Part shown: positions 45,442 through 61,563 of the stretch, piece after piece
Layout: each line of letters begins with the position of its first letter
Position numbering within the stretch: the stretch's first letter is position 1
Assembly (NCBI GenBank): GCA_019187225.1
Contig: JABAQQ010000039.1
Location: forward strand, 1-64,000
Direction: 5' to 3'
DNA length: 64,000 nt
From: Saprospiraceae bacterium
GTDB lineage: Bacteria > Bacteroidota > Bacteroidia > Chitinophagales > Saprospiraceae
The notes under the pieces: generated by a model
What the model was told of the DNA's origin: nothing
The model's database searches: none
What the model saw: the letters and a program-made list of their open reading frames with translations, nothing else
Made by a program: the position numbers and the translations under genes

Positions 45442-46073
45442 CGGTGGACGGTGGACGGTGGACGGTAGACGGTAGATGGTGGACGGTAGATGGTGGACGG
45501 TAGACGGTGGATGGTGGACGGTGGACGGTGGACGGTAGACGGTGGACGGTAGACGGTAGACGGTAGACGGTGGATGGTGGACGGTAGACGATGGACGGTA
45601 GACGGTAGACGGTAGACGGCGGACGGTGGACGGTAGACGGTAGACGGTAGACGGTAGACGGTAGACGATGGAAAGCAGGTTTCCCCGTAAAGGACTATTT
45701 CAAATAAAATTTGGATTTTCGACACCACATCTAAGTGTGGCACGCCTAAGTGAAATGATTGATTATCAATGTGCGGACTGAGGTGTGCCACATATAGGTG
45801 AGCACTCTCAAATTATGAGGTTGTAGCAACACATCATTCGTTAACAGCAAAACTACAGAAAAACAAAAAGTCGCTTTTTTGCAGGAAAACCCTCAAAAAC
45901 GGGGTAAAATGAGGCGCAAAAACCCTTATAACCAATTGGTTTTGCTCCTGTTAGCCTTTTACAGGAAGACCCTGCTTTCCACCGTCTACCGTCTACCGTC
46001 TACCGTCTACCGTCCACCGTCTACCGTCTACCGTCCACCGTCCACCGTCCACCGTCTACCGTCCACCGTCTAC
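45439..46073. repeat. Inverted pair of 7-base satellite arrays (gacggtg / ccaccgt words)
   Basis: 45439-45668 is about 32 tandem copies of a 7-base word (gacggtg, gacggta, gatggtg). 45977-46073 is about 13 copies of the complement. Just inside both arrays ggaaagcagg (45669-45678) and cctgctttcc (45971-45980) also pair. The left array starts at the DUF4294 stop codon and the right array contains the last five codons and stop of the cyclase gene. The 290-base centre includes a weak hairpin (tggcacgcct with aggtgtgcca, 45738-45794) and no clear gene. Confidence 0.95.
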
Positions 46074-48149
46074 AAAATACATCTCAATTTCTCCCTTGTT
46101 TTTGGCGGCTAATTTTCCCCGGAAGGTACAATCGAACAGATGGCGGACGCGCTGATAAGTGGTTTCGGAAATATTGATCTTTCCCGTTTCTCCGCTTTGT
46201 TCGAGCCGTGCCGCCGTGTTCACGGTATCGCCCCAGATGTCGTAGGCGAATTTGTGGCTACCCACAACGCCGGCTACTACGGGGCCAGTGTGGATACCGA
46301 TACGCATTTCGAAGACGGGCTTTCCGGCGGCGGCGTTTTGTTGCATGAGTGCGCCGAGTTCGTGGAGCATTTCGAGCGCAGCGTTCACAACATCAGCCGG
46401 GTGTGTTTCATTGGGAGTGGGCAGACCACCCGCACACATGTAGGAGTCGCCGATGGTTTTGATCTTTTCAAGGCCATGTTTCTCAACAATGGTGTCGAAC
46501 AGCCGGAAGCAATTGTCTAATTCCTGGATGAGTTCTTCGGGCGACACCCGTTCGGCGATCATGGTAAATCCTTTAAAATCGGTGAACATGACCGTGACGG
46601 ATTCATAGCGGACGGGTTGCACGGTATTGTGCAATTTGAGTTCCTCGGCTGTTTTTTCGGGCAGGATATTTTTGAGCAAACGGTCGGCGCGCTCGCGTTC
46701 GCGCTGTATGGCGTCGTTTTTGGCGGCCAGTTCGCGGTTGGCGCGCGCGCGGATGCGGTTGCGGTTGAAGAGCAATGCCGCCAAGAGAGAGAGGGCAAAG
46801 GCACCGCCCAGCAGGGCGTATTGCCGCGTGCGGGCAGTGGCCAGTTCGGCGTCGCGGATGCGCAGTTCCTGTTTTTGTCTTTCTATCTCCTCCTCTTTTT
46901 TCTGGTCTTTAAACAACTCTTCTTTCCGGGCGAATGCGACGCCAAGCCGCAGATTCATCCGTTTGTATCTGAGTTCGTCGTATTTCACCCTCCATTGATA
47001 GGCTTCGTCAAAATCACCCATGGCTGCATATACCTCTGCGAAGTCCTTGTAAGCGCCCTGAATGTATTTTTCATCTCCCGCTTCCTGTGCGATCTGGTAG
47101 TATTTCTGCGTGTATTCGAGCGCCAGGTTGAGCCTGCCTGCGCGCCCATGCACGTCGCCGATGATGTTGTACACTTCCATCAACCCCTGCACATCGTTCA
47201 ATGAAAGGCAGATTTCTTCTGCCATTTGCAAATAGCGGAGCGCTACCGGGTACTCGCCGGTATGCTTATAGGCATCGCCCATGTTGATATAAACCTGGGC
47301 CTGGCCGGGCAGATCGTCCAATCGTTTGCTGATATCGAGCGCTTGTTGGTAATAAACGAGCGCAATCCTTGGCGAATCCAACTCATCGAGCGCGTTGGCA
47401 TAATCCAGGATGGCTTCGGCGTACCGGCCGGGGTCGTCTAATTGCTTGCGGAGCCGGAGGGCGCGTTCGTACCAAACGAGTGCAGAATCATAACGCTCCA
47501 TTTCAAACCACAGGTGTCCCAGTTGCGCTTGTACCTTAGCGACACCTTCGCGATCCTCGAGGGTTTCAAAAACGGCGCGGGCGCTAAGCAGGTCGTTCTG
47601 CGCTTCCGGGTACAAGCCCATTTCCTGCTGTGCAGCGGCCATGTTGAAATGCGCGCGGGCAACTTTTACAGTGTCGCCCAACTGTCGTTGTATCCTGAGA
47701 TTTTCGCGGTAGACTGCCAGGGCAGAATCGAAACGCCCCTGATAATCGTACAAAATGCCGAGATTGTTCAGCGTGGCGCCGACTTCGCGCAGGTCGCCCA
47801 AGCGGCGGCGGATGGCAAGGGCTTTCTGGTAATAAATTTTCGCTTGTTCGAGGTTACCCCGGATTTCTTCCACCACGCCGAGACCGTTCCAGGCGACGGC
47901 TTCGCCTTTGGGAAAATTGAGTTGTTGCGCCAGGGCAAGGGCTATATGCAGCAGAGAATCGGCCTTATCCGTATGCGACTCGTTGATCTCCCATGCGTAA
48001 TCCGTCAGCAAGGTGACGCGGTGCGTATCTGCCGGGGCTTTTTCCAGCAAGCGGGCAAGGGAATCGGCTATGGAGTTTTGGGCGAAAAAAGCGGCCGGCA
48101 GCAGGAGAACCGCTACCAGGAAAGTATTTTCCAGGAACCGTTTTTTCAT
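46056..48149 (-). CDS. TPR-repeat class III adenylate cyclase
   Basis: A 697-residue membrane protein. A signal or anchor segment (1-24) precedes about eight TPR repeats (about 60-390, e.g. AVAWNGLGVVEEIRGNLEQA), likely periplasmic. A transmembrane helix (QYALLGGAFALSLLAALLFN, about 440-460), a coiled coil (to about 495) and a cytoplasmic class III cyclase domain (about 515-690) follow. Metal Asp residues are in FTDFKGFT and IGDSYMCAGG; Lys in EKIKTIGDSY and Asp in YDIWGDTVNTAARLE point to ATP, so it should make cAMP. The final VDGGR and stop are satellite sequence. The stop of the SNF2 gene upstream lies 16 bases before the start. Confidence 0.92.
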   Translation of the reverse strand: MKKRFLENTFLVAVLLLPAAFFAQNSIADSLARLLEKAPADTHRVTLLTDYAWEINESHTDKADSLLHIALALAQQLNFPKGEAVAWNGLGVVEEIRGNLEQAKIYYQKALAIRRRLGDLREVGATLNNLGILYDYQGRFDSALAVYRENLRIQRQLGDTVKVARAHFNMAAAQQEMGLYPEAQNDLLSARAVFETLEDREGVAKVQAQLGHLWFEMERYDSALVWYERALRLRKQLDDPGRYAEAILDYANALDELDSPRIALVYYQQALDISKRLDDLPGQAQVYINMGDAYKHTGEYPVALRYLQMAEEICLSLNDVQGLMEVYNIIGDVHGRAGRLNLALEYTQKYYQIAQEAGDEKYIQGAYKDFAEVYAAMGDFDEAYQWRVKYDELRYKRMNLRLGVAFARKEELFKDQKKEEEIERQKQELRIRDAELATARTRQYALLGGAFALSLLAALLFNRNRIRARANRELAAKNDAIQRERERADRLLKNILPEKTAEELKLHNTVQPVRYESVTVMFTDFKGFTMIAERVSPEELIQELDNCFRLFDTIVEKHGLEKIKTIGDSYMCAGGLPTPNETHPADVVNAALEMLHELGALMQQNAAAGKPVFEMRIGIHTGPVVAGVVGSHKFAYDIWGDTVNTAARLEQSGETGKINISETTYQRVRHLFDCTFRGKLAAKNKGEIEMYFVDGGR

Positions 48150-51123: not shown

Positions 51124-51401
51124 ACGGGTGGCAAAGGTAGGGGGCGTTTATTTCACGTAGATCGGACTGGAGGTTACACCATGACAAAAAGTAGCAAAAG
51201 AAGGGGGTGTTTATTTCGTTGCGAAGCAATTTTTTTGATTTCCGATATTAGCCGGTTACTTTTTCATTTGAGCAGGCATAAATAGTTGAACACACTCAAA
51301 ATGCCCGGTTGTTGCCGGGGACATGAAACTGCCATCACAAAATAAAAAACAAAATAATTCCGCCTTCACAGTAAAATTGCACTAAGATTTCAAATGAGAC
51401 C

Positions 51402-52016
51402 ATGGCTCGCATCTTAGACATTTTTCTGAATCGCGGCGGCAACAAACACTGCCATGCGTATCCCGACCCTAAAAGCCTGTTCGACGGACTCGAACGGGAA
51501 GCTCCCGGCGCCATCCGCTGCCTTTCGGCCAAAATCGCCGGTTCGGTGTACAAAACCGGAAGACTGTACCAGCTCGTGGACGACGACATCGAGGAACTGA
51601 TGTGCGACTGCATCACTCTCATGATCGAAAAGATCAGGGCGGGGCAGTACGCATTTCAGGGTTACGACCCGGCCACTTTTGCCATAGAGATCGCCAAAAA
51701 CAAAGTCCGCAATTTCCGCCGGAATGCCGACCGGAATGCCACCGGAGAACTCACCCCCGCGCACGAACTGGCCGAAGATGACGAAATTCACCTCAGCAGC
51801 CTCGAACAAACCGAATTGCTCGAAACGCTGCTGCAAAAAATCAGCGACAACTGCCGCAACCTCATCCGCCTCAGATACCTCGAAGAAATCAAGGACAAAG
51901 ACGCGATCGCCCGACAACTGACTCAATACAGTACCGTGGACGCGTTGAAAAACCACCGGGCAATGTGCATGAAAAAGTTGGTCGAACTGGCGCAACAACG
52001 CAGCGTGAAACACTAA
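51402..52016 (+). CDS. ECF-like RNA polymerase sigma factor
   Basis: A 204-residue protein with sigma-70 regions 2 and 4. Region 2: CLSAKIAGSVYKTGRLYQLV through IEELMCDCITLMIEKI and NKVRNFRRN. Region 4: LLQKISDNCRNLIRLRYLEE then IKDKDAIARQLTQYSTVDAL, a helix-turn-helix that reads the -35-like element. It would direct RNA polymerase to a dedicated promoter set. It starts a plus-strand cluster with the anti-sigma-like gene 15 bases downstream. No region 3 or 1 is present. taagatttc at about 51382 is a weak -7 candidate. Confidence 0.85.
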   Translation: MARILDIFLNRGGNKHCHAYPDPKSLFDGLEREAPGAIRCLSAKIAGSVYKTGRLYQLVDDDIEELMCDCITLMIEKIRAGQYAFQGYDPATFAIEIAKNKVRNFRRNADRNATGELTPAHELAEDDEIHLSSLEQTELLETLLQKISDNCRNLIRLRYLEEIKDKDAIARQLTQYSTVDALKNHRAMCMKKLVELAQQRSVKH

Positions 52017-52031
52017 AAACTTCAACCGGTT

Positions 52032-52805
52032 ATGCATTCGATTTACGATAACATAGAGGCCTTCATCAATGGCGAACTGGAAGGAGCCACCTTGCAGGAA
52101 TTCGAATCGGCACTGGCCTCGGATACCGCGTTGCAAGAAGCCGTAGCCCGACACCGCGACATGATCGCCCGGCTCGGCGCCCTGCGCCTGCGGCAAACGG
52201 TAAAAAAAAATATGGTGCGGCCTTCGGAAGGGGGCGCATCTTTTACGGTTAGCCGCCGCCTGCTGGCAGCGGCGGCATCTTTGGTGTTGGTGGCTGCAGC
52301 CGTTTATTTTTGGTTGCAAACACCTAAACCGGTTAAGCCGGATATTGCCGGGCCTGCTCCCGTTGTGCCCGATACTTCCGCAGTGGTGGAAATGCCCCCG
52401 ACACCCGACTCGCCACCACCCGGCACAGCGCGACCTGCTTCACCCGCCGAAACGCTTACGAAAGACAATGCCGTGCTCATCGCCTGCGCGGAGGCCGTGC
52501 AGCAAATGAGCGAAATTGATTACACCACGATGGGCGCCGATGAAAAAGACCCTGTGATCGAACGCCAACTGAACAATGCCATCCGCCTGCTCCGGGATAA
52601 AAAACCTGCCCAGGCCGGCGCTTTGCTCGATGCCGTTTTGAAAAAAAACAATGCCCTCTACCGGGAAGACGCCGAATGGCTGTACGCCCTGAGTTGGCTG
52701 ATGCGCGACCCGGCAAAAGGCAAAAACCTGCTGAAAAACATCGAACAGGACCCGGCGCACGGTTACCGCTCCAACGCGATCGGCTTGTTAGAAAAAATTG
52801 AATAA
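52032..52805 (+). CDS. One-TM anti-sigma-like protein
   Basis: 257 residues. The N-terminal cytoplasmic part (1-75; YDNIEAFINGELEGATLQEF) has the short helical form of anti-sigma domains but no zinc-binding HXXXCXXC. A single membrane helix (about 77-95, LLAAAASLVLVAAAVYFWL) follows, then a Pro-rich periplasmic linker (about 97-145, PPTPDSPPPGTARP) and a helical C-terminal domain (146-257, NAIRLLRDKKPAQAGALLDA) like TPR repeats. Between the sigma factor and a secreted caspase-like protease, it is the natural sigma inhibitor and possibly a substrate of the nearby proteases. Function is inferred from order and topology. Confidence 0.75.
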   Translation: MHSIYDNIEAFINGELEGATLQEFESALASDTALQEAVARHRDMIARLGALRLRQTVKKNMVRPSEGGASFTVSRRLLAAAASLVLVAAAVYFWLQTPKPVKPDIAGPAPVVPDTSAVVEMPPTPDSPPPGTARPASPAETLTKDNAVLIACAEAVQQMSEIDYTTMGADEKDPVIERQLNNAIRLLRDKKPAQAGALLDAVLKKNNALYREDAEWLYALSWLMRDPAKGKNLLKNIEQDPAHGYRSNAIGLLEKIE

Positions 52806-52826
52806 AAACCTGAAAATAAAACCTTT

Positions 52827-54731
52827 ATGAAATCAATCTTTTTATCCCGCGCCATCGCCTTCGCGCTCCTGTTCGGTGCATTTTTCGCACAGGCCCAACC
52901 CCGCAAACGCGCCCTGCTCGCCGGTGCTGGCAATTATCCGCCCGCCTCCGGCTGGTCCGTCCTGAACGCTGCCTCCGGCGTTCAAATGATGCGCTCCACC
53001 CTGCTCCAGCAAGGCTTCCAGGACAATGACATCCTCGTCCTGACCGATGCCGCCGCCACGCGGGCAGGTATTATCAAGGCTTTTCAAAATCACCTGATCC
53101 AACAATCTGCCCCCGGCGACATCGCGGTTTTTCATTTTTACGGTCATGGCTGCCAGGTGCCCGACGACAACGGCGACGAGATTGACCAGGCCGACGAAGC
53201 CATTGCTCCTTACGACAGCGAAAAACCAGTGGCGGCCGGTCAGACCAGGAACCTCATCCGCGACGACGAACTGAGCGAATGGACAGCCCGCCTGCGCGAA
53301 AAAGCCGGGGCTTCAGGCCAGGTATTGGTATTGCTCGATGCCTGCCATGCAGGCACGGGTGTGCGCGGAAGCGAAGACGCCCCCCCCGGCGCTGCTGCTG
53401 AAACCCATAGTTTGTTAAAAAACACTACGGCGTCCGGGGATGCCGCACCCGCGCCAATGGTCGCTTTTTTCTCCAGTGCGCCCCAGCAAAAGAGCCTCGA
53501 AATCACCTGGGAAAACGGCGAAAAATGCGCCCTGCTCACCTGGGCTTTTTGCAAAGCTATGACGCGCGTCAGGCCGGAAAGCACTTATAGGGGCCTCTTC
53601 GAACAAATCGCCCTTTTGATCACTGCCAAAATCAACAAACAAACGCCTCAGGCCGAAGGAGCGCTCGACATGCGCGTGTTCGGTGAAAAAGTAGCGCCGC
53701 CTCCGCTCTATTTCAACACCTACATATCCAGCGCCAACGGCCGGGAGATCCGCCTTCGCGGCGGCCTCATGCACGGCCTGCAACCCGGCACCGAAGTCGC
53801 GTTGTATCCCCCGGAGACCCGCGATACCGCCACCCTCCGGCCACTGGCGAAAGGCTACGTCATGGACGAAGGCGCGGGCCTGATCGAATGCCGCGTGGCG
53901 CTCGACCGGCCCCTGACTGCCGAGCAACTGACGCCAGCCTGGACTTTCATCACCCTGCGCCGTTTCAACGGCTACAACATCAGCATACGACTCGCCATCA
54001 GCGACCCGGTACAGGAAAAAGCTGTCCGCGAACGGCTCGCCTCCATGCCTTCGGTGCGGTGGGGCGATGAAAATCCCGAATTGACCATAACCTCGGACAA
54101 AGACAAACACCTGCTGCTGTTTTCCGCCGACAGTACACTGGTATGGAAAACGGATTACGCCGCTGCTCCTCCTGAAACCGCTCTGAAAGCCCTGCAGGAC
54201 GCCATCGGCAATTACATGCAGGCCGAGTTCCTGCGCGACCTGGAATTCGACGGCACGCCCTACCGCATGGACTTCGACGCCCGTGCCGAAGCGACCGCCT
54301 CGACGCCCGTAGCCGCCGGCCTCACACTTCGCCGGAATAAAGACGTCGCCCGGCTGCGCGTGGCCAACCGCAGCCCCAAAACCGTGTATTACACCATTCT
54401 CGACATAGACGGCGCCAACAAAGTGACCGTGCTGCTGCCGCCCGAAGGCAGGAGCCCCAACGAATACGCGCTCGCTCCCAACGAAAGCCGCGAACACCGG
54501 GTCAAATTCGACACGCCCGGCCGCGAAGTGCTCAAACTCATCGCCACACCGGTGTCCATTGACCTGCGGCCCGCCATCGCATCGCGCGGGCGCTCCACAC
54601 AAGGCCGCACGTTTTTTGAAAACCTGTTTTCCGATACTTTCCTGTGGGAGGGCGATCAGCGCGGGCCGCTGGAGGCGTATAAAGGAAACGAGGCGGGGGT
54701 GGAGACGGTGGTGATTGAGGTAAGGGAGTGA
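52827..54731 (+). CDS. Secreted caspase-like (C14/metacaspase) protease
   Basis: 634 residues with a signal peptide (MKSIFLSRAIAFALLFGAFF, cut near AQA). The caspase fold at 25-290 starts RKRALLAGAGNYPP; the catalytic dyad is His107 in HFYGHGCQVPDDNGDE and Cys173 in LLDACHAGTGV, with an acidic pocket region (EIDQADEAIAPYDSE) typical of metacaspase-like proteins. Residues 300-634 are beta-rich with a DUF4384-like segment (KTVYYTILDIDGANKVTVLL). It starts 21 bases after the anti-sigma-like gene. A short-word array begins six bases after the stop. It is probably periplasmic; its substrate is unknown. Confidence 0.9.
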   Translation: MKSIFLSRAIAFALLFGAFFAQAQPRKRALLAGAGNYPPASGWSVLNAASGVQMMRSTLLQQGFQDNDILVLTDAAATRAGIIKAFQNHLIQQSAPGDIAVFHFYGHGCQVPDDNGDEIDQADEAIAPYDSEKPVAAGQTRNLIRDDELSEWTARLREKAGASGQVLVLLDACHAGTGVRGSEDAPPGAAAETHSLLKNTTASGDAAPAPMVAFFSSAPQQKSLEITWENGEKCALLTWAFCKAMTRVRPESTYRGLFEQIALLITAKINKQTPQAEGALDMRVFGEKVAPPPLYFNTYISSANGREIRLRGGLMHGLQPGTEVALYPPETRDTATLRPLAKGYVMDEGAGLIECRVALDRPLTAEQLTPAWTFITLRRFNGYNISIRLAISDPVQEKAVRERLASMPSVRWGDENPELTITSDKDKHLLLFSADSTLVWKTDYAAAPPETALKALQDAIGNYMQAEFLRDLEFDGTPYRMDFDARAEATASTPVAAGLTLRRNKDVARLRVANRSPKTVYYTILDIDGANKVTVLLPPEGRSPNEYALAPNESREHRVKFDTPGREVLKLIATPVSIDLRPAIASRGRSTQGRTFFENLFSDTFLWEGDQRGPLEAYKGNEAGVETVVIEVRE

Positions 54732-54736
54732 GGGGC

Positions 54737-54823
54737 GGACATTGGACTGCTGGACGTTGGACTGTTGGACATTGGACTGCTGGACATTGGACGTTGGACT
54801 GCTGGACGTTGGACTGTTGGACA
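54737..54823. repeat. Short-word array (ggactgctggac)
   Basis: Tandem words ggactgct, ggacattgg and ggacgttgg with no inverted half. It starts six bases after the caspase gene stop. Confidence 0.9.
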
Positions 54824-54916
54824 ATTGATTATCAAACCTTTGACTGAGGAACTATCGAAATCAAATCTTTATCTCAGGAATGGCTAAAAAACAAGCACCC
54901 TATTTTCCCTGTCTCG

Positions 54917-55007
54917 CGTGTCATTCTGAGCGCAGCGAAGAATCTGCCCAGGAGCATCTGATATTCAATCGCTTCAGCAGATTCCTCCTGCGTCGGAATG
55001 ACACGGC
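54917..55007. repeat. GTCATYCYG palindromic element, copy 4
   Basis: Left arm 54917-54950 (cgtgtcattctgagcgcagc) and right arm 54976-55007 are imperfect complements; flanks to about 55050 match inverted flanks of 40053-40141. It forms a false N-terminal extension (with the CHSERSEES-type peptide) to the TPR-CHAT frame. Confidence 0.85.
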
Positions 55008-55122
55008 GGAGAGGAAAATGAAGAACTTATTTATGGCCGTTACCCACTTTACCCAACGTCCCTTGTCAATGAATCAAACATCAGAAATACAACACATCAA
55101 TTCATCACAAATGGCATTCAAC

Positions 55123-58100
55123 ATGAAAACAATTGTCTTTTGCTTATCCGTTTTTTTTGTTCTTTTTTGGGGGGATCGGGTGGAAGCGCAGGTGGCGGAT
55201 TCGGCGGCGGTGGTGAGGGAGGTGGATAGTTTGATACAGATTTCCCGCGCCCTTACGGGTAAAAAAGATTTCGACAAAGCATTGGAAGTCAATGTTGTTG
55301 CTGAAAAAATTGCATTGGAAAGATTTGGCAAAGAATCGGCAGCCTATGGTAGTGCGTGCTTTAATCATGGAAGAGTGCTTCATTTTAAAGGAGATTTTTC
55401 TGAAGTGGAAAAATGGTACTTAGAAGCCAAAGCCGTTCGGGAAAAAATATTGGGCAAAGAACACTCTGACTATACAGCAAACCTAAACAATTTAGCAGCT
55501 TTGTATAGAAGCTTGGGTAACTATGAAAAAGCCGAGCCGCTTTATCTCGAAACCATTGCCATTCAGAAGAAAATATTGGGCAATGAACATCCTGATCATG
55601 CAGCGAGCTTGAACAATCTGGCGATTTTATACAAGAGCATGGGCAACTATGAAAAAGCCGAGCCGCTTTATCTAGAGGCTTTAGCCATTCGGAAGAAAAT
55701 ATTGGGGGAAAATCATCCTGATTATGCACGGAGCTTGTATAATCTTGCGGGTTTATATTCAGACATGGTTAATTATGAAAAAGCCGAGCCGCTTTATCTC
55801 GAAACTATTGCCATTCAGGAGAAAATACTAGGCAAAGAGCATCCTGACTATGCCTGGAGTTTGAGTAATTTGGCGAATTTATACGATCATAAGGGAAATT
55901 ATGAAAAAGCCGAGCTGCTTTATGTTGAAGCCCTTGCCATTAAGGAGAAAATATTGGGTAAAAATAACCCTGACCATGCACGGACCCAAAACAATCTGGC
56001 GGTTTTGTATACAAAAATGGGTGCATATGAAAAAGCTGAACTATTTTATCTCGAAACCATTGCCATCCGGAAGAATATATTGGGCAAAAATCACCCTGAC
56101 TACGCCTGGAGCCTGAATAATTTGGCGCTTATGTATTTTGACATGGGCAACTATGAAAAAGCCGAGCCGCTTTATCTCGAAACCATTGCAATTTGGGAGA
56201 AAATACCGGGCAAAGAAAATCCTGGTTATGCATCGAGCCTGAACAATTTGGCGAATTTGTACAATAGTATTGGCAACTTTGAAAAAGCTAAGCAGCTTTA
56301 TCACGAAGCCCTTCCCATTCAGGAGAAAATATTAGGCAAGGAACATCCTGACTATGTACAAAGCCTGAATAATTTGGCTGTCTTGTTCGATCGCATGGGT
56401 AACCATGAAAAATCTGAGCAGCTCTACATCGAAATCCTTGTCATTCGAAAAAAAACGTTAGGTAAAGCGCATCCTGACTATGCGCAGAGCCTGAACAATA
56501 TGGCGATTTTGTATTGGCGCATTGGCAACCATGAAAAAGCCGAACTGCTTTATCTTGAAGCGCTCTCCGTTTATGAAAAGACTTTTGGTAAGGAGCACCC
56601 TATCTATGCACAGAATCTGAACAATCTGGCAAATTTGTATTTGGACATGGGTAACTATGAGAAAGCCGAACAGCTTTTCGTCGAATCTCTTGCTATTTGG
56701 GAAAAAGTATTGGGCGACAAGCACCCTGAATATGCATGGAATCAGCACAGTCTGGCGAAATTTTATTGGACTGTAAAAAAATTTAACCTCGCCAGACATT
56801 TTTTATTTAATGCCTTGAAATTAGATGAATTGCTGCTCCTGAATGCCGCACGGCATCTTTCTGAAAAGGAATTGACCGCATACATCCGAATATTTGCTGA
56901 TGGAGGAAATCAATTGTTCTCTTTCGCGCAAATGAAGGAGGAAGGATATACCCTTGGTTACAACTTTACTCTTTTTCACAAAGGTTTTTTGTTAAACGCT
57001 GTTTCGCAGATCGCCAAACTGTCGCAGAGCAATCCGGCAATCGTAGAAAAATACCATCTCTTCAAATCGTATCACCATCGTCTGGCCAAAGGAAACGCTG
57101 CACCTTTTGCCGAGCGCGACAGCGCAAACGTTGTCAATCTCGAAGAAAAAGCCAACAACCTCGAAAAAGAACTCACCCGCACCGTCGCCAGCTTCGGCGA
57201 AGCATCGCGGCAGGTCGAATGGCAGGAAGTGCAGGCTGCACTCCGCCCGGAAGAGGCCACCATCGAGTTCGTCCATTATGAATTCGTCAATCCGAAGCCG
57301 ACGGACAGCACCATGTATGCTGCCCTCGTTCTCTTGCCCTCCGACACCGCCCCCCACTTCATCCCCCTCTTCGAACAAAAACAGCTCAACACCCTCCTCT
57401 CCAAAACCCAAAGCAGCGCCCAATCCGTCGGCAACCTCTACGCTGCTGCCCGCAGCGGCATCGTGCTCGACGAAATCCCCGCCTACGGTACCGAACTCTA
57501 TAACCTCATCTGGAAACCATTGGACAGTCTCCTGCAAGGTGTTAAAACCATTTATTTCTCCCCTTCCGGCCTGCTGCACCGCGTCAACCTCGCCGCCATA
57601 CCGGTGGATTCCACCCACGTCCTGGCAGATCGTTACACCCTGCGCCAAATGAGCAGCACACGGAATCTGGTGGTCAAAACACCCGAACCTGTACCGGCAG
57701 GATACACCGCCGCCCTGTTCGGCGGCATCCAGTACAACACCGACAGCACAGCATTGAGCAGCGCGGCGCTGGCATCGAGAGGAAGCGAGACGCCCGCTTC
57801 GCGCAGCACCCTCGAATACACCGCCGATGCGCAGCGCGATACCGCCAAAGCCTGGAATTACCTCGAAGGCACCCGCGCCGAAGTGGACAGCCTGCAACGG
57901 CAAATGCAGCGCAACGGCCTGAATGTCAAAACCTTTACCGGCCTGGCGGCCACCGAGGAAAGCCTCAAAGCCCTCGGCCGCGACACCGTCAAAAGCCCCG
58001 ACATCCTGCACATCGCCACACACGGCTTTTTCTTCGACGACCCGGAAAAACGCAGGGAGCAGCGCTTCGGCGACGAAAACGTGTTCCGCTGGAACGAAAA

Positions 58101-58509
58101 CCCGCTGTTCCGCTCCGGCCTCATCATGGCCGGCGCCGACCATGCCTGGCAGACGGGGCGTCCCTACGCCAACCTCGAAGACGGCATTTGTACGGCTTAC
58201 GAGATCAGTCACCTCAATCTTTCCAACACCAAACTCGCCGTTTTATCCGCCTGCGAGACCGGCCTGGGCGACATCAAAGGCTCGGAAGGCGTGTATGGCC
58301 TGCAACGCGCCTTCAAAATGGCCGGGGTGGACTACCTCATCGTCAGCCTGTGGAAAGTGCCCGACGCGCAGACGGTAGAGTTCATGGACGCTTTTTACAG
58401 GAACTGGCTGGGTGGAGAGACGATACACGAAGCATTCGCCAAAGCGCAGCAGATGATGCGGCAGAAGTATGGGGTGTATGAGTGGGGGGCGTGGGTGCTG
58501 ATCGAGTAG
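55123..58509 (+). CDS. Secreted TPR-CHAT protease
   Basis: 1,128 residues. Signal peptide MKTIVFCLSVFFVLFWGDRV (cut near EAQ). About eleven TPR repeats at an exact 42-residue step (about 90-550; consensus NYEKAEPLYLEALAI and HPDYA.SLNNLA.LY). A helical linker follows, then the CHAT caspase-type domain (about 780-1128) with His967 in HIATHGFFF and Cys1044 in LSACETGLGD. TPRs in such proteins usually sense a partner and switch the protease. The TPR part is visibly more AT-rich than the CHAT part. ATG 55123 is preferred; 55111 is also possible, and the frame to 54880 is repeat-derived. It is 391 bases beyond the caspase gene, in the same direction. Confidence 0.9.
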   Translation: MKTIVFCLSVFFVLFWGDRVEAQVADSAAVVREVDSLIQISRALTGKKDFDKALEVNVVAEKIALERFGKESAAYGSACFNHGRVLHFKGDFSEVEKWYLEAKAVREKILGKEHSDYTANLNNLAALYRSLGNYEKAEPLYLETIAIQKKILGNEHPDHAASLNNLAILYKSMGNYEKAEPLYLEALAIRKKILGENHPDYARSLYNLAGLYSDMVNYEKAEPLYLETIAIQEKILGKEHPDYAWSLSNLANLYDHKGNYEKAELLYVEALAIKEKILGKNNPDHARTQNNLAVLYTKMGAYEKAELFYLETIAIRKNILGKNHPDYAWSLNNLALMYFDMGNYEKAEPLYLETIAIWEKIPGKENPGYASSLNNLANLYNSIGNFEKAKQLYHEALPIQEKILGKEHPDYVQSLNNLAVLFDRMGNHEKSEQLYIEILVIRKKTLGKAHPDYAQSLNNMAILYWRIGNHEKAELLYLEALSVYEKTFGKEHPIYAQNLNNLANLYLDMGNYEKAEQLFVESLAIWEKVLGDKHPEYAWNQHSLAKFYWTVKKFNLARHFLFNALKLDELLLLNAARHLSEKELTAYIRIFADGGNQLFSFAQMKEEGYTLGYNFTLFHKGFLLNAVSQIAKLSQSNPAIVEKYHLFKSYHHRLAKGNAAPFAERDSANVVNLEEKANNLEKELTRTVASFGEASRQVEWQEVQAALRPEEATIEFVHYEFVNPKPTDSTMYAALVLLPSDTAPHFIPLFEQKQLNTLLSKTQSSAQSVGNLYAAARSGIVLDEIPAYGTELYNLIWKPLDSLLQGVKTIYFSPSGLLHRVNLAAIPVDSTHVLADRYTLRQMSSTRNLVVKTPEPVPAGYTAALFGGIQYNTDSTALSSAALASRGSETPASRSTLEYTADAQRDTAKAWNYLEGTRAEVDSLQRQMQRNGLNVKTFTGLAATEESLKALGRDTVKSPDILHIATHGFFFDDPEKRREQRFGDENVFRWNENPLFRSGLIMAGADHAWQTGRPYANLEDGICTAYEISHLNLSNTKLAVLSACETGLGDIKGSEGVYGLQRAFKMAGVDYLIVSLWKVPDAQTVEFMDAFYRNWLGGETIHEAFAKAQQMMRQKYGVYEWGAWVLIE

Positions 58510-58585
58510 GTATTTTGATGGACGAATGGCCATGCGTCCATCAAAATAAATCCCCCAACAATCTTAAACAAACAAAAAGAAACAG

Positions 58586-58756
58586 TAAAAACTTAGGCAG
58601 GGGCAGCGCCCCGAAAGATTTGTAGTGATTTATGCACAAAATCACCGTGGAGGGGCAGCGCCCCGGAATATGTTACGGGGCGCTGCCCCTCCACGAAATA
58701 ATATCGGTCTTTCTGCTACAAATTTTTCGGGGCGCTGCCCCTGCCTAAGTTTTTAC
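58586..58756. repeat. 171-base nested palindrome, copy 1
   Basis: Begins aaaacttaggcaggggcagc and ends with the complement. Two further gggcagcgccccg/ggggcgctgcccc blocks lie inside. A near-identical copy in the same orientation is at 61567-61735. Confidence 0.95.
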
Positions 58757-58788
58757 AAGAAACAAATAAAATTTAGTAATTAACGCAA

Positions 58789-58862
58789 GTTGTGACCAGC
58801 CCCGGAGGGGCGAAATATTTGTAGCAGATCAGGTTAAAACAGCATTAAAAGCCCCTTTAGGG
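58789..58862. repeat. Left half of an interrupted palindromic element
   Basis: gttgtgaccagccccggagg through gcccctttaggg is complementary to 60287-60374. The IS4-family element sits between the halves. Confidence 0.9.
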
Positions 58863-60276
58863 CAATGTCGTTGACTTAAGGAAAAAAGCGAGTGTGGAAA
58901 GTGTAAGTTTGAGTTGGAAAAATTCAAACACGCTCACACACCCGCCATGACAACAAAAGTAAAAATCATCTTGGAAGGGATGAAGGCCTTTGTGCAAAAC
59001 GCGCTGACTCGCCCTGATAAATACCTATGCAGAGCACAGGATTTCACGCGTCAACGTGTTCTAAGTTTCGACAAATTGTGTTTTTTTATGATTAATCAAT
59101 CCAAACGTTCTTTGAGTATTGAATTAAATGAACACTTTGGTTACTATGACCAGCGGGCGTGCACCAAAGGAGCCTTCAGTAAGGCTCGGTATCGGGTTTT
59201 ATGGTGTTTTTTTCGGGATTGGCAGCGCCACTTTACTTCTTTGGTGTATGACCAACCAAAGGATTTAATGCGCTGGAAGGGGTATTACCTCAAAGGCATT
59301 GATGGGACGAGTTTGTACCTATTCAAGGATGAAGAGGTAGAAAAAGAATTTGGCAGCCAAACCAACCAACATGTACGCATTCCGATGGCTCGGGCTGGCT
59401 TGGAAGTAGATGTGCTCAATGGGTTTTGCACCCAAGCCCAACTACAACCCTATTGGGCAGGGGAGAAGGTATACGCCGAGGCGTTCCTGGAGCGTGCCGG
59501 TGAAAAAGATCTACTGATATACGATCGCTATTTTGCAGGTTTTGAATTGATATTCAAGCACATGCAGAAAAACAGGTTGTTTTTAATGCGTTGTAAAACA
59601 GGTTTTAATCAGGTGGTCAAGCGCTTTGTTGCCAGCGGCAAAAAGCAAGCCTTAGTGGAATTCCCCATTCCCCACATCAGCCGATGTGCTCTTCAAAAAC
59701 AAGGATATGATGTCAATGTTAAAACAACCCTTCGCATTAGATTAGTGCGCATCGACATAGGACAAGAAGAACCGGAAATTCTTATTACCAACCTCTTGTG
59801 CCCCAAGCGCTACCCGCATGCTGATTTCAAAGAAGTCTATAATTACCGTTGGGGAGATGAAACCAAGTTCGATCAGATAAAAAACAAATTCCAGATCGAA
59901 ATCTTTTCAGGCCACAAACCCCAGGCCATTTACCAAGATTTTTTTGCAACTATTATCGCGGCTAATCTTCATAATTTGATCCTCCGTCAGTGCGACCACG
60001 AAGTACAACAGATCAATGCTCAAAGAAAAAAACCTGTTGCAATTAACCAAAATGTTTCAATCGGCCTGCTTAAACCACGTTTGATTGAACTGTTCACTAC
60101 CAAACATCCCTCCTCTATTTTCAATGAACTCAAAGAACTTTTTTTAGCGCATTTGGAATTGGTTCGTCCAGGCAGGATGTACCCCAGAACCAAAACCGCC
60201 CGACGATTAAAGGGGAAATTTCAAACCTTCAAAAATTATCGAAGAGCATGCTAATTTCCTTAAGTCAACGACATTG
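58863..60276 (+). mobile_element. IS4-family insertion sequence, complete
   Basis: 1,414 bases with perfect 22-base terminal inverted repeats (58863-58884 starting caatgtcgttgacttaag, and 60255-60276). Ten-base flanks CCCTTTAGGG (58853-58862) and CCCTTGAGGG (60277-60286) match at nine positions, as a target duplication would. It carries one intact transposase gene and lies in the middle of a palindrome. Confidence 0.92.
58947..60254 (+). CDS. IS4-family transposase
   Basis: A 435-residue DDE transposase. The acidic triad is visible: Asp in YLKGIDGTSLYLF, Asp in LLIYDRYFAGFEL and Glu in YNYRWGDETKFDQIK. The last segment fits the IS4-family Y-(2)-R-(3)-E-(6)-K signature exactly. The long beta insertion between the second Asp and Glu is the usual IS4 form. 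The frame is intact, so the element may be active. ATG 58947 (MTTKVKIILEGMKAFVQ) is chosen over a TTG at 58914. Confidence 0.93.
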   Translation: MTTKVKIILEGMKAFVQNALTRPDKYLCRAQDFTRQRVLSFDKLCFFMINQSKRSLSIELNEHFGYYDQRACTKGAFSKARYRVLWCFFRDWQRHFTSLVYDQPKDLMRWKGYYLKGIDGTSLYLFKDEEVEKEFGSQTNQHVRIPMARAGLEVDVLNGFCTQAQLQPYWAGEKVYAEAFLERAGEKDLLIYDRYFAGFELIFKHMQKNRLFLMRCKTGFNQVVKRFVASGKKQALVEFPIPHISRCALQKQGYDVNVKTTLRIRLVRIDIGQEEPEILITNLLCPKRYPHADFKEVYNYRWGDETKFDQIKNKFQIEIFSGHKPQAIYQDFFATIIAANLHNLILRQCDHEVQQINAQRKKPVAINQNVSIGLLKPRLIELFTTKHPSSIFNELKELFLAHLELVRPGRMYPRTKTARRLKGKFQTFKNYRRAC

Positions 60277-60286
60277 CCCTTGAGGG

Positions 60287-60374
60287 GCGGTAACATTTCG
60301 CCCCTAAAGGGGCTTTTTTGCTGTTTTAACCTGATCTGCTACAAATATTTCGCCCCTCCGGGGCTGGTCACAAC
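60287..60374. repeat. Right half of the interrupted palindromic element
   Basis: Complement of 58789-58862, ending ggggctggtcacaac. The innermost part also forms its own small hairpin (cccctaaagggg). Confidence 0.9.
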
Positions 60375-60398
60375 TGCATTAATTATCAGTGGTTTACA

Positions 60399-60440: not shown

Positions 60441-60592
60441 GAAAAAATTTCGGCAGGCGGTTACAAACGCCCGAAAGGCGGGCATGAATGGTCAAACAAA
60501 AAACGGAGGCGCCGGAAAATCCGAAAAAGAGTACGGCGGGGATGCTGAAAACCGCGAAGAGTAGGCAATCAAAATTCATTCATCTCTCCAAT

Positions 60593-61093
60593 ATGAAACA
60601 GATCCTTTTTGCAACGGTCCTTTTCGCATCCTTCTTGTTCGATGCCAACGCTCAAATCGTTCGTTATGAAAAATTCATCGGCGACCTTCCCAATTACCAG
60701 CAAGTCAGCGGCGTGTACCGCCGTACGGTCAATCCTGATCTCTATGTCTGGGTAGATGTGCCAGCACAGCCCGGCAATTACGCTGAATCCACCTGCAAAG
60801 AATGCCTTCGGGAGGCCATCATCGCCACAGGCGTTTCCACCATGATTTCAGCGGTCAGTTCCTCCGGCACCGCTTCGATGGCGACGGCCTCTGCCACTTT
60901 TCAAACGGTACTGACCAGCTGCATCCGCCAAAAGCTTCGCATTGCTTGCAGGTACGGGGCTTACGTGAGCAACGAATACGGCTCCTGGCATTATGTCACC
61001 ACTCCGGGATCGGATGTCGTGAACGCACCCAAAAAAGTAGCTAAAGAAGCGGAGCGTGCTGTAGAGAGAGTTGAAAAAATCCTGGGCTGGTAA
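60593..61093 (+). CDS. Small secreted protein of unknown function, Ala/Ser/Thr-rich core
   Basis: 166 residues, with signal peptide MKQILFATVLFASFLFDANA. I do not recognise a family. The mature chain has a Tyr/Pro-rich start (RYEKFIGDLPNYQQVSGVYR), a CKEC pair, then a 36-residue small-residue hydrophobic stretch (AIIATGVSTMISAVSSSGTA onward) bounded by cysteines, and a basic amphipathic C-terminus (KKVAKEAERAVERVEKILGW). The stretch could insert in a membrane. ATG 60593 sits just before the signal peptide. The sequence in front of it resembles that in front of the next small gene, so both may share control. Confidence 0.7.
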   Translation: MKQILFATVLFASFLFDANAQIVRYEKFIGDLPNYQQVSGVYRRTVNPDLYVWVDVPAQPGNYAESTCKECLREAIIATGVSTMISAVSSSGTASMATASATFQTVLTSCIRQKLRIACRYGAYVSNEYGSWHYVTTPGSDVVNAPKKVAKEAERAVERVEKILGW

Positions 61094-61269
61094 ATCCGGC
61101 TTGACAACCGAAGCAACCGGAAAAAAGAACGGCAGGGTTGCTGAAAACCGGATAAAGCAGGTAAGTAAAATCACAATTGTTGTGCGGCAGGCAATCCCGA
61201 AACTGCCTCAAAAAGAAGTAGGGCGCATGCTCCGAAAGCGTTAGTGTAGGAGACAAAATCTCTGTTATT

Positions 61270-61563
61270 ATGAAAAAAATCGTTTTGTTTTCCGCTTTTA
61301 TCAGCGCATTGTTTTCCGCTTTTTCCAGTAGTGCGCAATCGTCCTCCGCAACAATCGGAACCCGGCAAGGTGTGTCCTATGAAGTTGTCTCTACCAGAAT
61401 CGTGTATGAATTGACAACAAGATGCGGATACAACGACCTGGGCTCTGCTAATCAGGGGAAATTCAAGGTCGAAACCTTGCGCTTCGAGCAGTACGACAAA
61501 GGAAAGCTCGTCAAAACGTGGACTGAAGAGCGAAAGACTTTCATTGAATGTTACATTCTTTAA
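61270..61563 (+). CDS. Small secreted protein of unknown function
   Basis: 97 residues: a signal peptide (MKKIVLFSAFISALFSAFSS, cut near SAQ) and a beta-rich mature part of about 74 residues with two cysteines (TTRCGYNDLG and TFIECYIL) that could form a disulphide. No family recognised. It lies between the other small secreted gene and the second 170-base palindrome, four bases from it, so the palindrome could act as its terminator. Confidence 0.65.
   Translation: MKKIVLFSAFISALFSAFSSSAQSSSATIGTRQGVSYEVVSTRIVYELTTRCGYNDLGSANQGKFKVETLRFEQYDKGKLVKTWTEERKTFIECYIL

What the first reader, a model, noticed from the sequence alone, without database searches (positions are those of the whole stretch)
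51402..58509. Sigma / anti-sigma / caspase / TPR-CHAT cluster: a candidate protease-gated transcription module
Four plus-strand genes encode an ECF-like sigma factor, a single-TM anti-sigma-like protein with a Pro-rich periplasmic linker, an exported caspase-like protease (His107/Cys173) and an exported TPR-CHAT protease (His967/Cys1044). The first three are 15 and 21 bases apart. Two clan-CD proteases beside a sigma/anti-sigma pair recall type III-E CRISPR, where a TPR-CHAT protease cleaves Csx30 and affects its RpoE-like sigma factor; here there is no CRISPR and the proteases carry signal peptides. Hypothesis: the proteases cut the periplasmic linker of the anti-sigma protein and free the sigma factor.
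Basis: partly seen in the sequence, partly recalled or inferred. Interest (0 to 1): 0.8.

Follow-up and report, generated by a model that had tools for sequence, protein, structure and literature searches.

The report
Sigma-factor switches with exported caspase-like proteases
This is one of many copies, in a group of uncultured Bacteroidota, of a gene set in which a sigma factor and its membrane-bound inhibitor sit beside exported caspase-like proteases, probably a switch that lets proteases outside the cytoplasm turn on a nearby surface-protein gene.

Summary
The four genes are real and correctly named. The cluster is not a one-off. The host genome (relatives are Saprospiraceae-type MAGs) holds 16 sigma/anti-sigma/TPR-CHAT triplets, and 13 of its 26 CHAT domains lie within 5 kb of a sigma match (1.9 expected). 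Related species keep sigma + anti-sigma + CHAT together in same-strand, convergent or divergent order. Outside the genus such triplets occur, but the enrichment over a subtilase control is not significant. A caspase directly behind the anti-sigma was seen only here, in G013 and in G001. All 58 sigma-near CHATs examined keep the catalytic His/Cys pair; most look exported.

Two results bear on mechanism. The periplasmic part of the anti-sigma co-varies with the CHAT after sigma divergence is allowed for (r 0.39-0.44); the cytoplasmic part does not. A promoter-like motif, GGTTAC-N15/16-GGCAT, precedes the close sigma genes and recurs ahead of neighbouring secreted proteins, but not ahead of 8 convergent CHAT genes. 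This fits protease as input, surface protein as output. In the window a second copy precedes a small exported orphan, beyond an insertion sequence.

Closest known: DdvA (PDB: transmembrane anti-sigma factor with a CHAT domain), type III-E Csx29, ECF54. New variant of a known kind. Cleavage is not shown.

The parts
51254..51279 (+). promoter-like motif GGTTAC-N15-GGCAT, 122 bases ahead of the sigma start; likely autoregulation
   Evidence: Motif of this kind within 300 bases of 12 of 14 close sigma starts, window included; found in the window by pattern
51402..52016 (+). ECF-like sigma factor, 204 aa
   Evidence: TIGR02937 35.1 bits, below cut-off; profile matches ECF SigE structure 2q1z; homologues at E<=1e-5 in 43 of 100 genomes searched, own genome included
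52032..52805 (+). single-membrane-helix anti-sigma-like protein, 257 aa: cytoplasmic helices 4-60, TM 71-95, Pro-rich linker, periplasmic TPR-like domain 146-256
52827..54731 (+). exported caspase-like (C14) protease, 634 aa, H107/C173, with a C-terminal region conserved in its orthologues
   Evidence: PF00656 68.5 bits; orthologues 47% and 44% identical in L075 and L085 keep His and Cys
54880..58509 (+). exported TPR-CHAT protease; likely start 55123 (Met82); H1048/C1125 in ORF numbering
58788..60375 (.). insertion sequence: DDE transposase ORF 58914-60254 between 76-base inverted repeats, 91% complementary; lies between CHAT and the putative output gene
60459..60485 (+). second copy of the motif, GGTTAC-N16-GGCAT, ahead of the small exported protein
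60593..61093 (+). small exported orphan protein (166 aa from MKQILF...), putative output gene; the longer ORF starts at 60488
   Evidence: no relative at E<=0.001 in 99 other genomes
61270..61563 (+). second small exported protein, 97 aa, possibly co-transcribed with the last
   Evidence: no Pfam match

Best explanation
The locus is a trans-envelope switch. The single-pass anti-sigma protein holds the sigma factor at the inner membrane with its cytoplasmic helices and shows a Pro-rich linker and a small TPR-like domain to the periplasm. The exported TPR-CHAT protease, joined here by an exported caspase, engages that periplasmic part. When its TPR region meets a cue (unknown), the protease cuts the anti-sigma protein, ordinary regulated intramembrane proteolysis finishes the job, and sigma is freed. 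Sigma then drives its own operon and a neighbouring secreted surface-protein gene through GGTTAC-N15/16-GGCAT promoters; in this window the output would be the small exported protein(s) at 60593-61563. Shown: gene content, conservation, intact catalytic residues, motif positions, co-variation. Inferred: binding, cleavage, direction of control, cue.
For: Sigma-CHAT proximity in the host genome far above chance. In loci chosen by sigma similarity alone, 12 of 15 close ones have an adjacent CHAT or caspase, and 13 of 16 less close ones have a CHAT on the same strand behind the anti-sigma. His/Cys kept in 58 of 58 sigma-near CHATs and in the window, L075 and L085 caspases. Export-like N-termini in 40 of 49 sigma-near CHATs by a crude rule. 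Periplasmic part of anti-sigma against CHAT, given sigma: r 0.39-0.44, permutation p 0.001 or less; cytoplasmic part -0.02 to 0.09; host-genome paralogues alone (16) 0.32, p 0.016, against -0.03; seen in same-strand, convergent and divergent loci. Motif ahead of sigma and of secreted proteins: 20 of 113 genes in close loci against 2 of 771 control genes; no match ahead of 8 convergent CHAT genes. A stricter form of the motif: 17 sites in 18 genomes, 1 for the reversed control, 12 of 17 on the sigma contig. DdvA, titled an anti-sigma factor, carries a CHAT domain in one chain.
Against: No cleavage, binding or expression data. Co-variation can reflect shared gene history, is not significant in other genera alone (14 loci, r 0.17, p 0.17), and in the convergent loci the cytoplasmic part also correlates somewhat (0.24). 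Outside the genus the sigma-CHAT link does not beat the subtilase control after correction (12 of 38 against 3 of 21, P 0.12). The exported location is predicted from sequence only. In the window the caspase is 21 bases behind the anti-sigma gene and so probably in the same transcript, which also fits protease as output. Two close relatives (L076, L088) have the pair without CHAT or caspase nearby. The anti-sigma identity rests on position, topology and weak matches. Genome-wide in the host the exact motif is no more common than its reversed control, 7 against 8.
Confidence: 0.5

Rival explanations
1. Proteases as output: the sigma/anti-sigma pair answers some other envelope signal and the proteases belong to its regulon, acting outside the cell membrane on other targets.
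For: In the window the caspase is probably co-transcribed with sigma and anti-sigma, behind the motif at 51254. In 13 of 16 second-tier loci CHAT follows anti-sigma on the same strand.
Against: In the convergent loci the motif precedes the divergent surface protein, not CHAT. Co-variation with the periplasmic part only.
Confidence: 0.2
2. Non-proteolytic sensor: the TPR-CHAT protein binds the periplasmic TPR-like domain and controls the anti-sigma by contact, as a split form of a DdvA-like anti-sigma that carries a CHAT domain.
For: DdvA joins anti-sigma and CHAT in one chain; co-variation fits contact as well as cleavage; both partners have TPR or TPR-like domains.
Against: His and Cys kept in 58 of 58 sigma-near CHATs, although 23 of 24 distant ones keep them too.
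Confidence: 0.17
3. CHAT matures, escorts or checks the neighbouring surface protein during secretion and has no direct business with the anti-sigma protein.
For: Large secreted proteins, several with type IX sorting tails, lie next to CHAT in close loci; gingipains, which are clan-CD type IX cargo (recalled), match the fold.
Against: Type IX-tailed proteins are common (150 matches listed in this genome, from 413 candidates of which 150 were scored), so the neighbourhood alone says little. CHAT co-varies with the anti-sigma.
Confidence: 0.1
4. Coincidental neighbours in a genome rich in CHAT, caspase and sigma genes.
For: 26 CHAT, 11 caspase-domain and 53 sigma matches in one genome; outside the genus the enrichment is not significant against subtilases.
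Against: In the host genome 13 of 26 within 5 kb against 1.9 expected; subtilase control 1 of 15; conservation across species of the genus.
Confidence: 0.03

Closest known systems
DdvA transmembrane anti-sigma factor (PDB 8rot, 8rw5); source organism Myxococcus xanthus and partner DdvS are recalled, not from a call
   Different: One chain; here anti-sigma and TPR-CHAT are separate genes, CHAT is predicted exported, a caspase may be added, and many paralogues exist
Type III-E CRISPR: Csx29 - Csx30 - CASP-sigma (PMC10028731, abstract and passages seen)
   Different: Works in an RNA-guided effector complex (Cas7-11); here no RNA-guided effector seen at the locus, proteases predicted exported, inhibitor predicted membrane-anchored
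ECF54 sigma group (PMC8999054, one section read)
   Same: CHAT and subtilase genes in the sigma neighbourhood, proteolytic control proposed
   Different: [quoted passage not shown] here an anti-sigma-like gene is present
RseA/RsiW-type regulated proteolysis of anti-sigma factors (named in passages of PMC10028731)
   Same: Release of an ECF sigma by proteolysis of its anti-sigma (proposed here)
   Different: First cut would be made by a clan-CD cysteine protease instead of DegS/PrsW types (the latter recalled)
Metacaspase operons with sigma-70 genes in Myxococcus and others (PMC3501461, one section read)
   Same: C14 caspase next to sigma-70
   Different: No anti-sigma or CHAT mentioned in the section read; the genera named there are from other phyla

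Membership tests
Type III-E CRISPR (Craspase) | Cas7-11 effector at the locus | tested here: not met
   None of the 9 ORFs scanned around the locus matches a Cas family in Pfam. RAMP-family matches in the genome lie only on contig C36, in open frames of 344-625 aa
Type III-E CRISPR (Craspase) | TPR-CHAT protease of the Csx29 fold | tested here: met
   [not shown]
Type III-E CRISPR (Craspase) | protease cleaves a sigma inhibitor | not testable with these tools
   needs an assay
DdvA-type anti-sigma | anti-sigma and CHAT in one polypeptide | tested here: not met
   separate ORFs
DdvA-type anti-sigma | CHAT domain homologous to that of DdvA | tested here: met
   profile E 1.6e-11 to 8rot
ECF54 | sequence membership in the ECF54 group | not tested
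   no ECF group models on hand
ECF54 | no anti-sigma factor in the context | tested here: not met
   an anti-sigma-like gene directly follows sigma in the window; the relatives' triplets were defined by having one, so no frequency is claimed
ECF sigma factors | score over the TIGR02937 cut-off | tested here: inconclusive
   35.1 bits against 42.9 for the window protein; relatives' profile matches ECF SigE 2q1z; 42 of 53 matches in the genome are over the cut-off, the window's is not
Single-pass anti-sigma with regulated proteolysis | N-terminal helical sigma-binding domain plus one TM helix | tested here: inconclusive
   topology predicted; AlgU-MucA match only at rank 50, E 2.9
Single-pass anti-sigma with regulated proteolysis | site-2 protease (RseP) in the genome | not tested
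C14 caspase | family score and His/Cys pair | tested here: met
   68.5 bits against 21.4; H107/C173

The most novel reading that the evidence does not exclude
A many-times-duplicated class of trans-envelope switches in Saprospiraceae-like Bacteroidota, in which an exported separase/Csx29-like TPR-CHAT protease, each with its own matched periplasmic anti-sigma domain, turns on a private ECF sigma that drives one neighbouring secreted adhesin: caspase-type signalling outside the cytoplasm that controls which surface protein a cell shows. DdvA and type III-E Csx29 would then be a fused and an RNA-guided relative of a more general CHAT-to-sigma wiring.
Probability: 0.35. Interest if true: 0.87.

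Novelty: new variant of a known kind. Interest (0 to 1): 0.72.

Why it matters
CHAT and caspase-like proteases are numerous in such bacteria, mostly without a known job (recalled). If right, this gives a job to many of them: reading signals in the periplasm and passing them to gene expression. It would place the type III-E protease and the DdvA anti-sigma in one larger family of CHAT-to-sigma circuits, and it supplies 52 natural pairs, some with a promoter read-out, on which CHAT activation and specificity can be tested.

Tried and rejected
Type III-E CRISPR itself: no RNA-guided effector among the ORFs scanned at the locus; RAMP-family genes are on another contig.

Defence-system labels: PADLOC gives only generic caspase and TPR models and a weak Cas11a hit on sigma (E 0.005); not used.

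Enrichment outside the genus. In a sample of other genera (about every fourth row of the listing, itself truncated; 38 sites) one search counted 13 of 38 CHATs with a sigma within 3 kb against 2 of 20 subtilases, P 0.042. Two mends: one of the 13 (L182) is a CHAT ORF that also took a weak sigma label, and one control locus (L202), dropped because its target gene was not called, has a sigma 1.4 kb away. Mended, 12 of 38 against 3 of 21, P 0.12: not significant. Two of the three control sites (L178, L202) are themselves inside sigma-CHAT loci, and L178 is in both samples; several CHAT sites sit at contig ends. So no claim of enrichment outside the genus.

Type IX cargo beside modules as evidence by itself: rejected, since such tails are common (150 matches listed).

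A general pairwise search for shared promoter halves in the 52 loci had little power (close loci 8 observed, 5.3 expected; rest 56 against 39.4, in part from divergent neighbours that share one region). Leads seen there in L160 and L178 (TGTCAC...GATT ahead of both sigma and a secreted protein) were not followed.

Motif controls differ: exact GGTTAC-N15/16-GGCAT in the host genome is at chance overall (7 sites, 8 for the reversed control), while the stricter form designed from the relatives' sites is enriched (17 against 1). The forms used were chosen after seeing sites, so the positions matter more than the counts. A 10-of-98 Fisher value printed used a miscounted numerator and is not used.

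VIA-align rows for the 52032 model were filled by the TPR part and show no anti-sigma structure; that is not evidence against.

Papers: PMC10028731 abstract and passages; PMC8999054 one section and passages; PMC3501461 one section and passages; PMC10907252 passages; the rest seen only as search listings. The DdvA paper was not read; a DOI given from memory is not held. No paper listed in these searches was seen to describe the exported sigma/anti-sigma/CHAT module; only open-licence papers were searched.
Full report
What is there. The four ORFs named in the finding are present and oriented as stated. Gene 3 is a C14 caspase and gene 4 a TPR-CHAT protein by Pfam, both far over the cut-offs. Gene 1 is ECF-like but under the TIGR02937 cut-off by itself; a profile of 31 sequences of its family matches the ECF SigE structure 2q1z. 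Gene 2 has no Pfam match; its AlphaFold2 model shows N-terminal helices, one membrane-type helix, a low-confidence Pro-rich linker and a TPR-like C-terminal domain.

The host. The window is contig C19 of a 7.18 Mb genome. The 13 named records with a close relative of its sigma gene are metagenome-assembled genomes labelled Saprospiraceae (7), Chitinophagales (3), uncultured Bacteroidetes (2) and Saprospirales (1). The genome has 26 CHAT, 11 C14 and 53 sigma matches.

The association in the host genome and genus. In this genome 13 of 26 CHAT domains lie within 5 kb of a sigma match, 1.9 expected, P 6e-9; for caspases it is 3 of 10, P 0.03 (two C14 matches on C1 were counted as one). The subtilase control gives 1 of 15. 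With profiles that also find divergent sigma genes, 16 sigma/anti-sigma/CHAT triplets appear in the host genome, each with its own CHAT, one followed by two further CHATs. Loci picked by sigma similarity alone, so not chosen for CHAT: of 15 close ones (window included) 12 have a CHAT or caspase adjacent (one, L082, cut by its contig end), 2 do not (L076, L088) and 1 ends too early (L086). Of the next 16 sigma matches in other genomes, 13 have CHAT on the same strand behind the anti-sigma, 12 of them within 100 bases; about 40 weaker sigma matches were not fetched. Orientation varies: 23 same-strand, 19 convergent, 10 divergent among all 52 triplets collected. Proximity kept with free orientation suggests a functional link rather than only an inherited operon.

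Outside the genus. In a systematic sample of 38 CHAT genes of other genera, 12 have a sigma gene within 3 kb against 3 of 21 subtilases, P 0.12 after two mends to one search's count of 13 of 38 against 2 of 20. Triplets exist there (13 of the 52, plus one in a control region), but enrichment is not shown.

The caspase. The exact order of the window (sigma, anti-sigma, caspase, CHAT) recurs in G013 (L075); G001 (L085) has the first three before its contig ends. These caspases are 47% and 44% identical to the window's and keep His and Cys. Elsewhere in the host genome three caspase genes lie 3.4-4.4 kb from a sigma gene (L093, L094, L095), and the other caspase genes have no sigma gene in the stretches fetched.

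Who talks to whom. For 52 triplets (14 of them from other genera) I compared pairwise distances. Given sigma distance, the periplasmic part of the anti-sigma correlates with the CHAT (0.44; 0.39 with a quadratic control; permutation p 0.001 or less), the cytoplasmic part does not (0.09; -0.02). This holds within the host genome alone (16 triplets, 0.32, p 0.016, against -0.03), in column subsets of matched size (0.29-0.43), with one locus per sigma cluster (35 loci, 0.27, p 0.001, against -0.02), and in same-strand (0.46), convergent (0.53) and divergent loci (0.73, 10 loci), where sigma rather than the periplasmic part lies nearer to CHAT; in the convergent loci the cytoplasmic part reaches 0.24. 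It is not significant in the other-genera set alone (14 triplets, 0.17, p 0.17). Shared gene history can also produce such residual correlation; the cytoplasmic part serves as the control against that.

Direction of control. Upstream regions of the close sigma genes share GGTTAC-N15/16-GGCAT-like sites: 12 of 14 within 300 bases, first element, spacer and second element varying slightly. In the window it is at 51254-51279. A loose pattern, set before the upstream regions of the large secreted proteins had been viewed, matched ahead of that protein in the 5 loci printed and in none of the 8 convergent CHAT upstream regions. Over the genes of the close loci 20 of 113 carry the motif (9 sigma, 11 other, of which one, ahead of the window caspase, lies inside the anti-sigma coding region) against 2 of 771 in control loci, P 5e-17 (the sigma part is circular). 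A stricter form gives 17 sites in 18 genomes, 1 for the reversed control; 12 of 17 are on the sigma contig, three of these being sigma promoters, and one more (L226) sits between the start of a TPR protein and an adhesin-like gene on another contig of a genome whose sigma contig ends inside CHAT. Of the proteins behind these sites that were scanned, several carry type IX sorting tails, SdrD_B, PKD, HYR or lectin domains. So sigma most likely controls itself and one or two neighbouring surface proteins, and CHAT stands outside that regulon in the convergent loci: an input, not an output. In the window the second exact site (60459-60485) precedes a small exported orphan, beyond an insertion sequence with 76-base inverted repeats. 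In the host genome as a whole the exact motif is at chance, 7 sites against 8 for the control.

Mechanism. The best-supported reading is a protease-gated anti-sigma switch with a surface protein as output (confidence 0.5). Cleavage, the cue and the final release by a site-2 protease are inferred. Why two proteases occur here is open: the anti-sigma proteins of the three loci with a caspase right behind them share a shortened periplasmic domain in the alignment, so the caspase may have taken over as the partner; three related cases cannot prove it.

Known and new. A review notes carboxypeptidase, subtilase and CHAT genes beside ECF54 sigma factors and proposes proteolytic control without an anti-sigma; metacaspase-sigma operons are noted in Myxococcus and others; type III-E supplies the proven case of a CHAT protease cutting a sigma inhibitor. 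I found no description of the exported, anti-sigma-containing, multi-copy module in the searches listed. Hence a new variant of a known kind.

Noticed in passing
window 54737-54822: Short tandem array (units of 15-37 bases around GGACATTGGACTGCT) between caspase and CHAT genes.
   Followed up: partly
window 58585-58756: 41-base near-perfect inverted repeat (98%) rich in GGGGCAGCGCCCC behind the CHAT gene, outside the insertion sequence.
   Followed up: no
window 46056-48149: TPR protein with an adenylate/guanylate cyclase domain, two genes upstream of the module on the other strand.
   Followed up: no
L151 4047-5873: An ORF with a Thiol_cytolysin domain lies between the sigma pair and CHAT in another genus; subtilase, SprB-repeat and M43 proteins sit in similar places elsewhere (L178, L203, L130, L162).
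   Followed up: partly
L160 and L178: Possible different promoter (TGTCAC...GATT) shared by sigma and a secreted neighbour, which would extend the local-regulon idea to other genera.
   Followed up: no
G099: A genome of the same order with 45 CHAT matches in 7.6 Mb.
   Followed up: no
G000 contig C36 20287-26671 (L230, L231): Three RAMP-family matches, so a type III CRISPR-like cluster may exist elsewhere in the host genome.
   Followed up: no
L076 2635-3540: In one close relative the sigma pair has no CHAT or caspase nearby; an ORF that looks by eye like a subtilase lies there instead.
   Followed up: no
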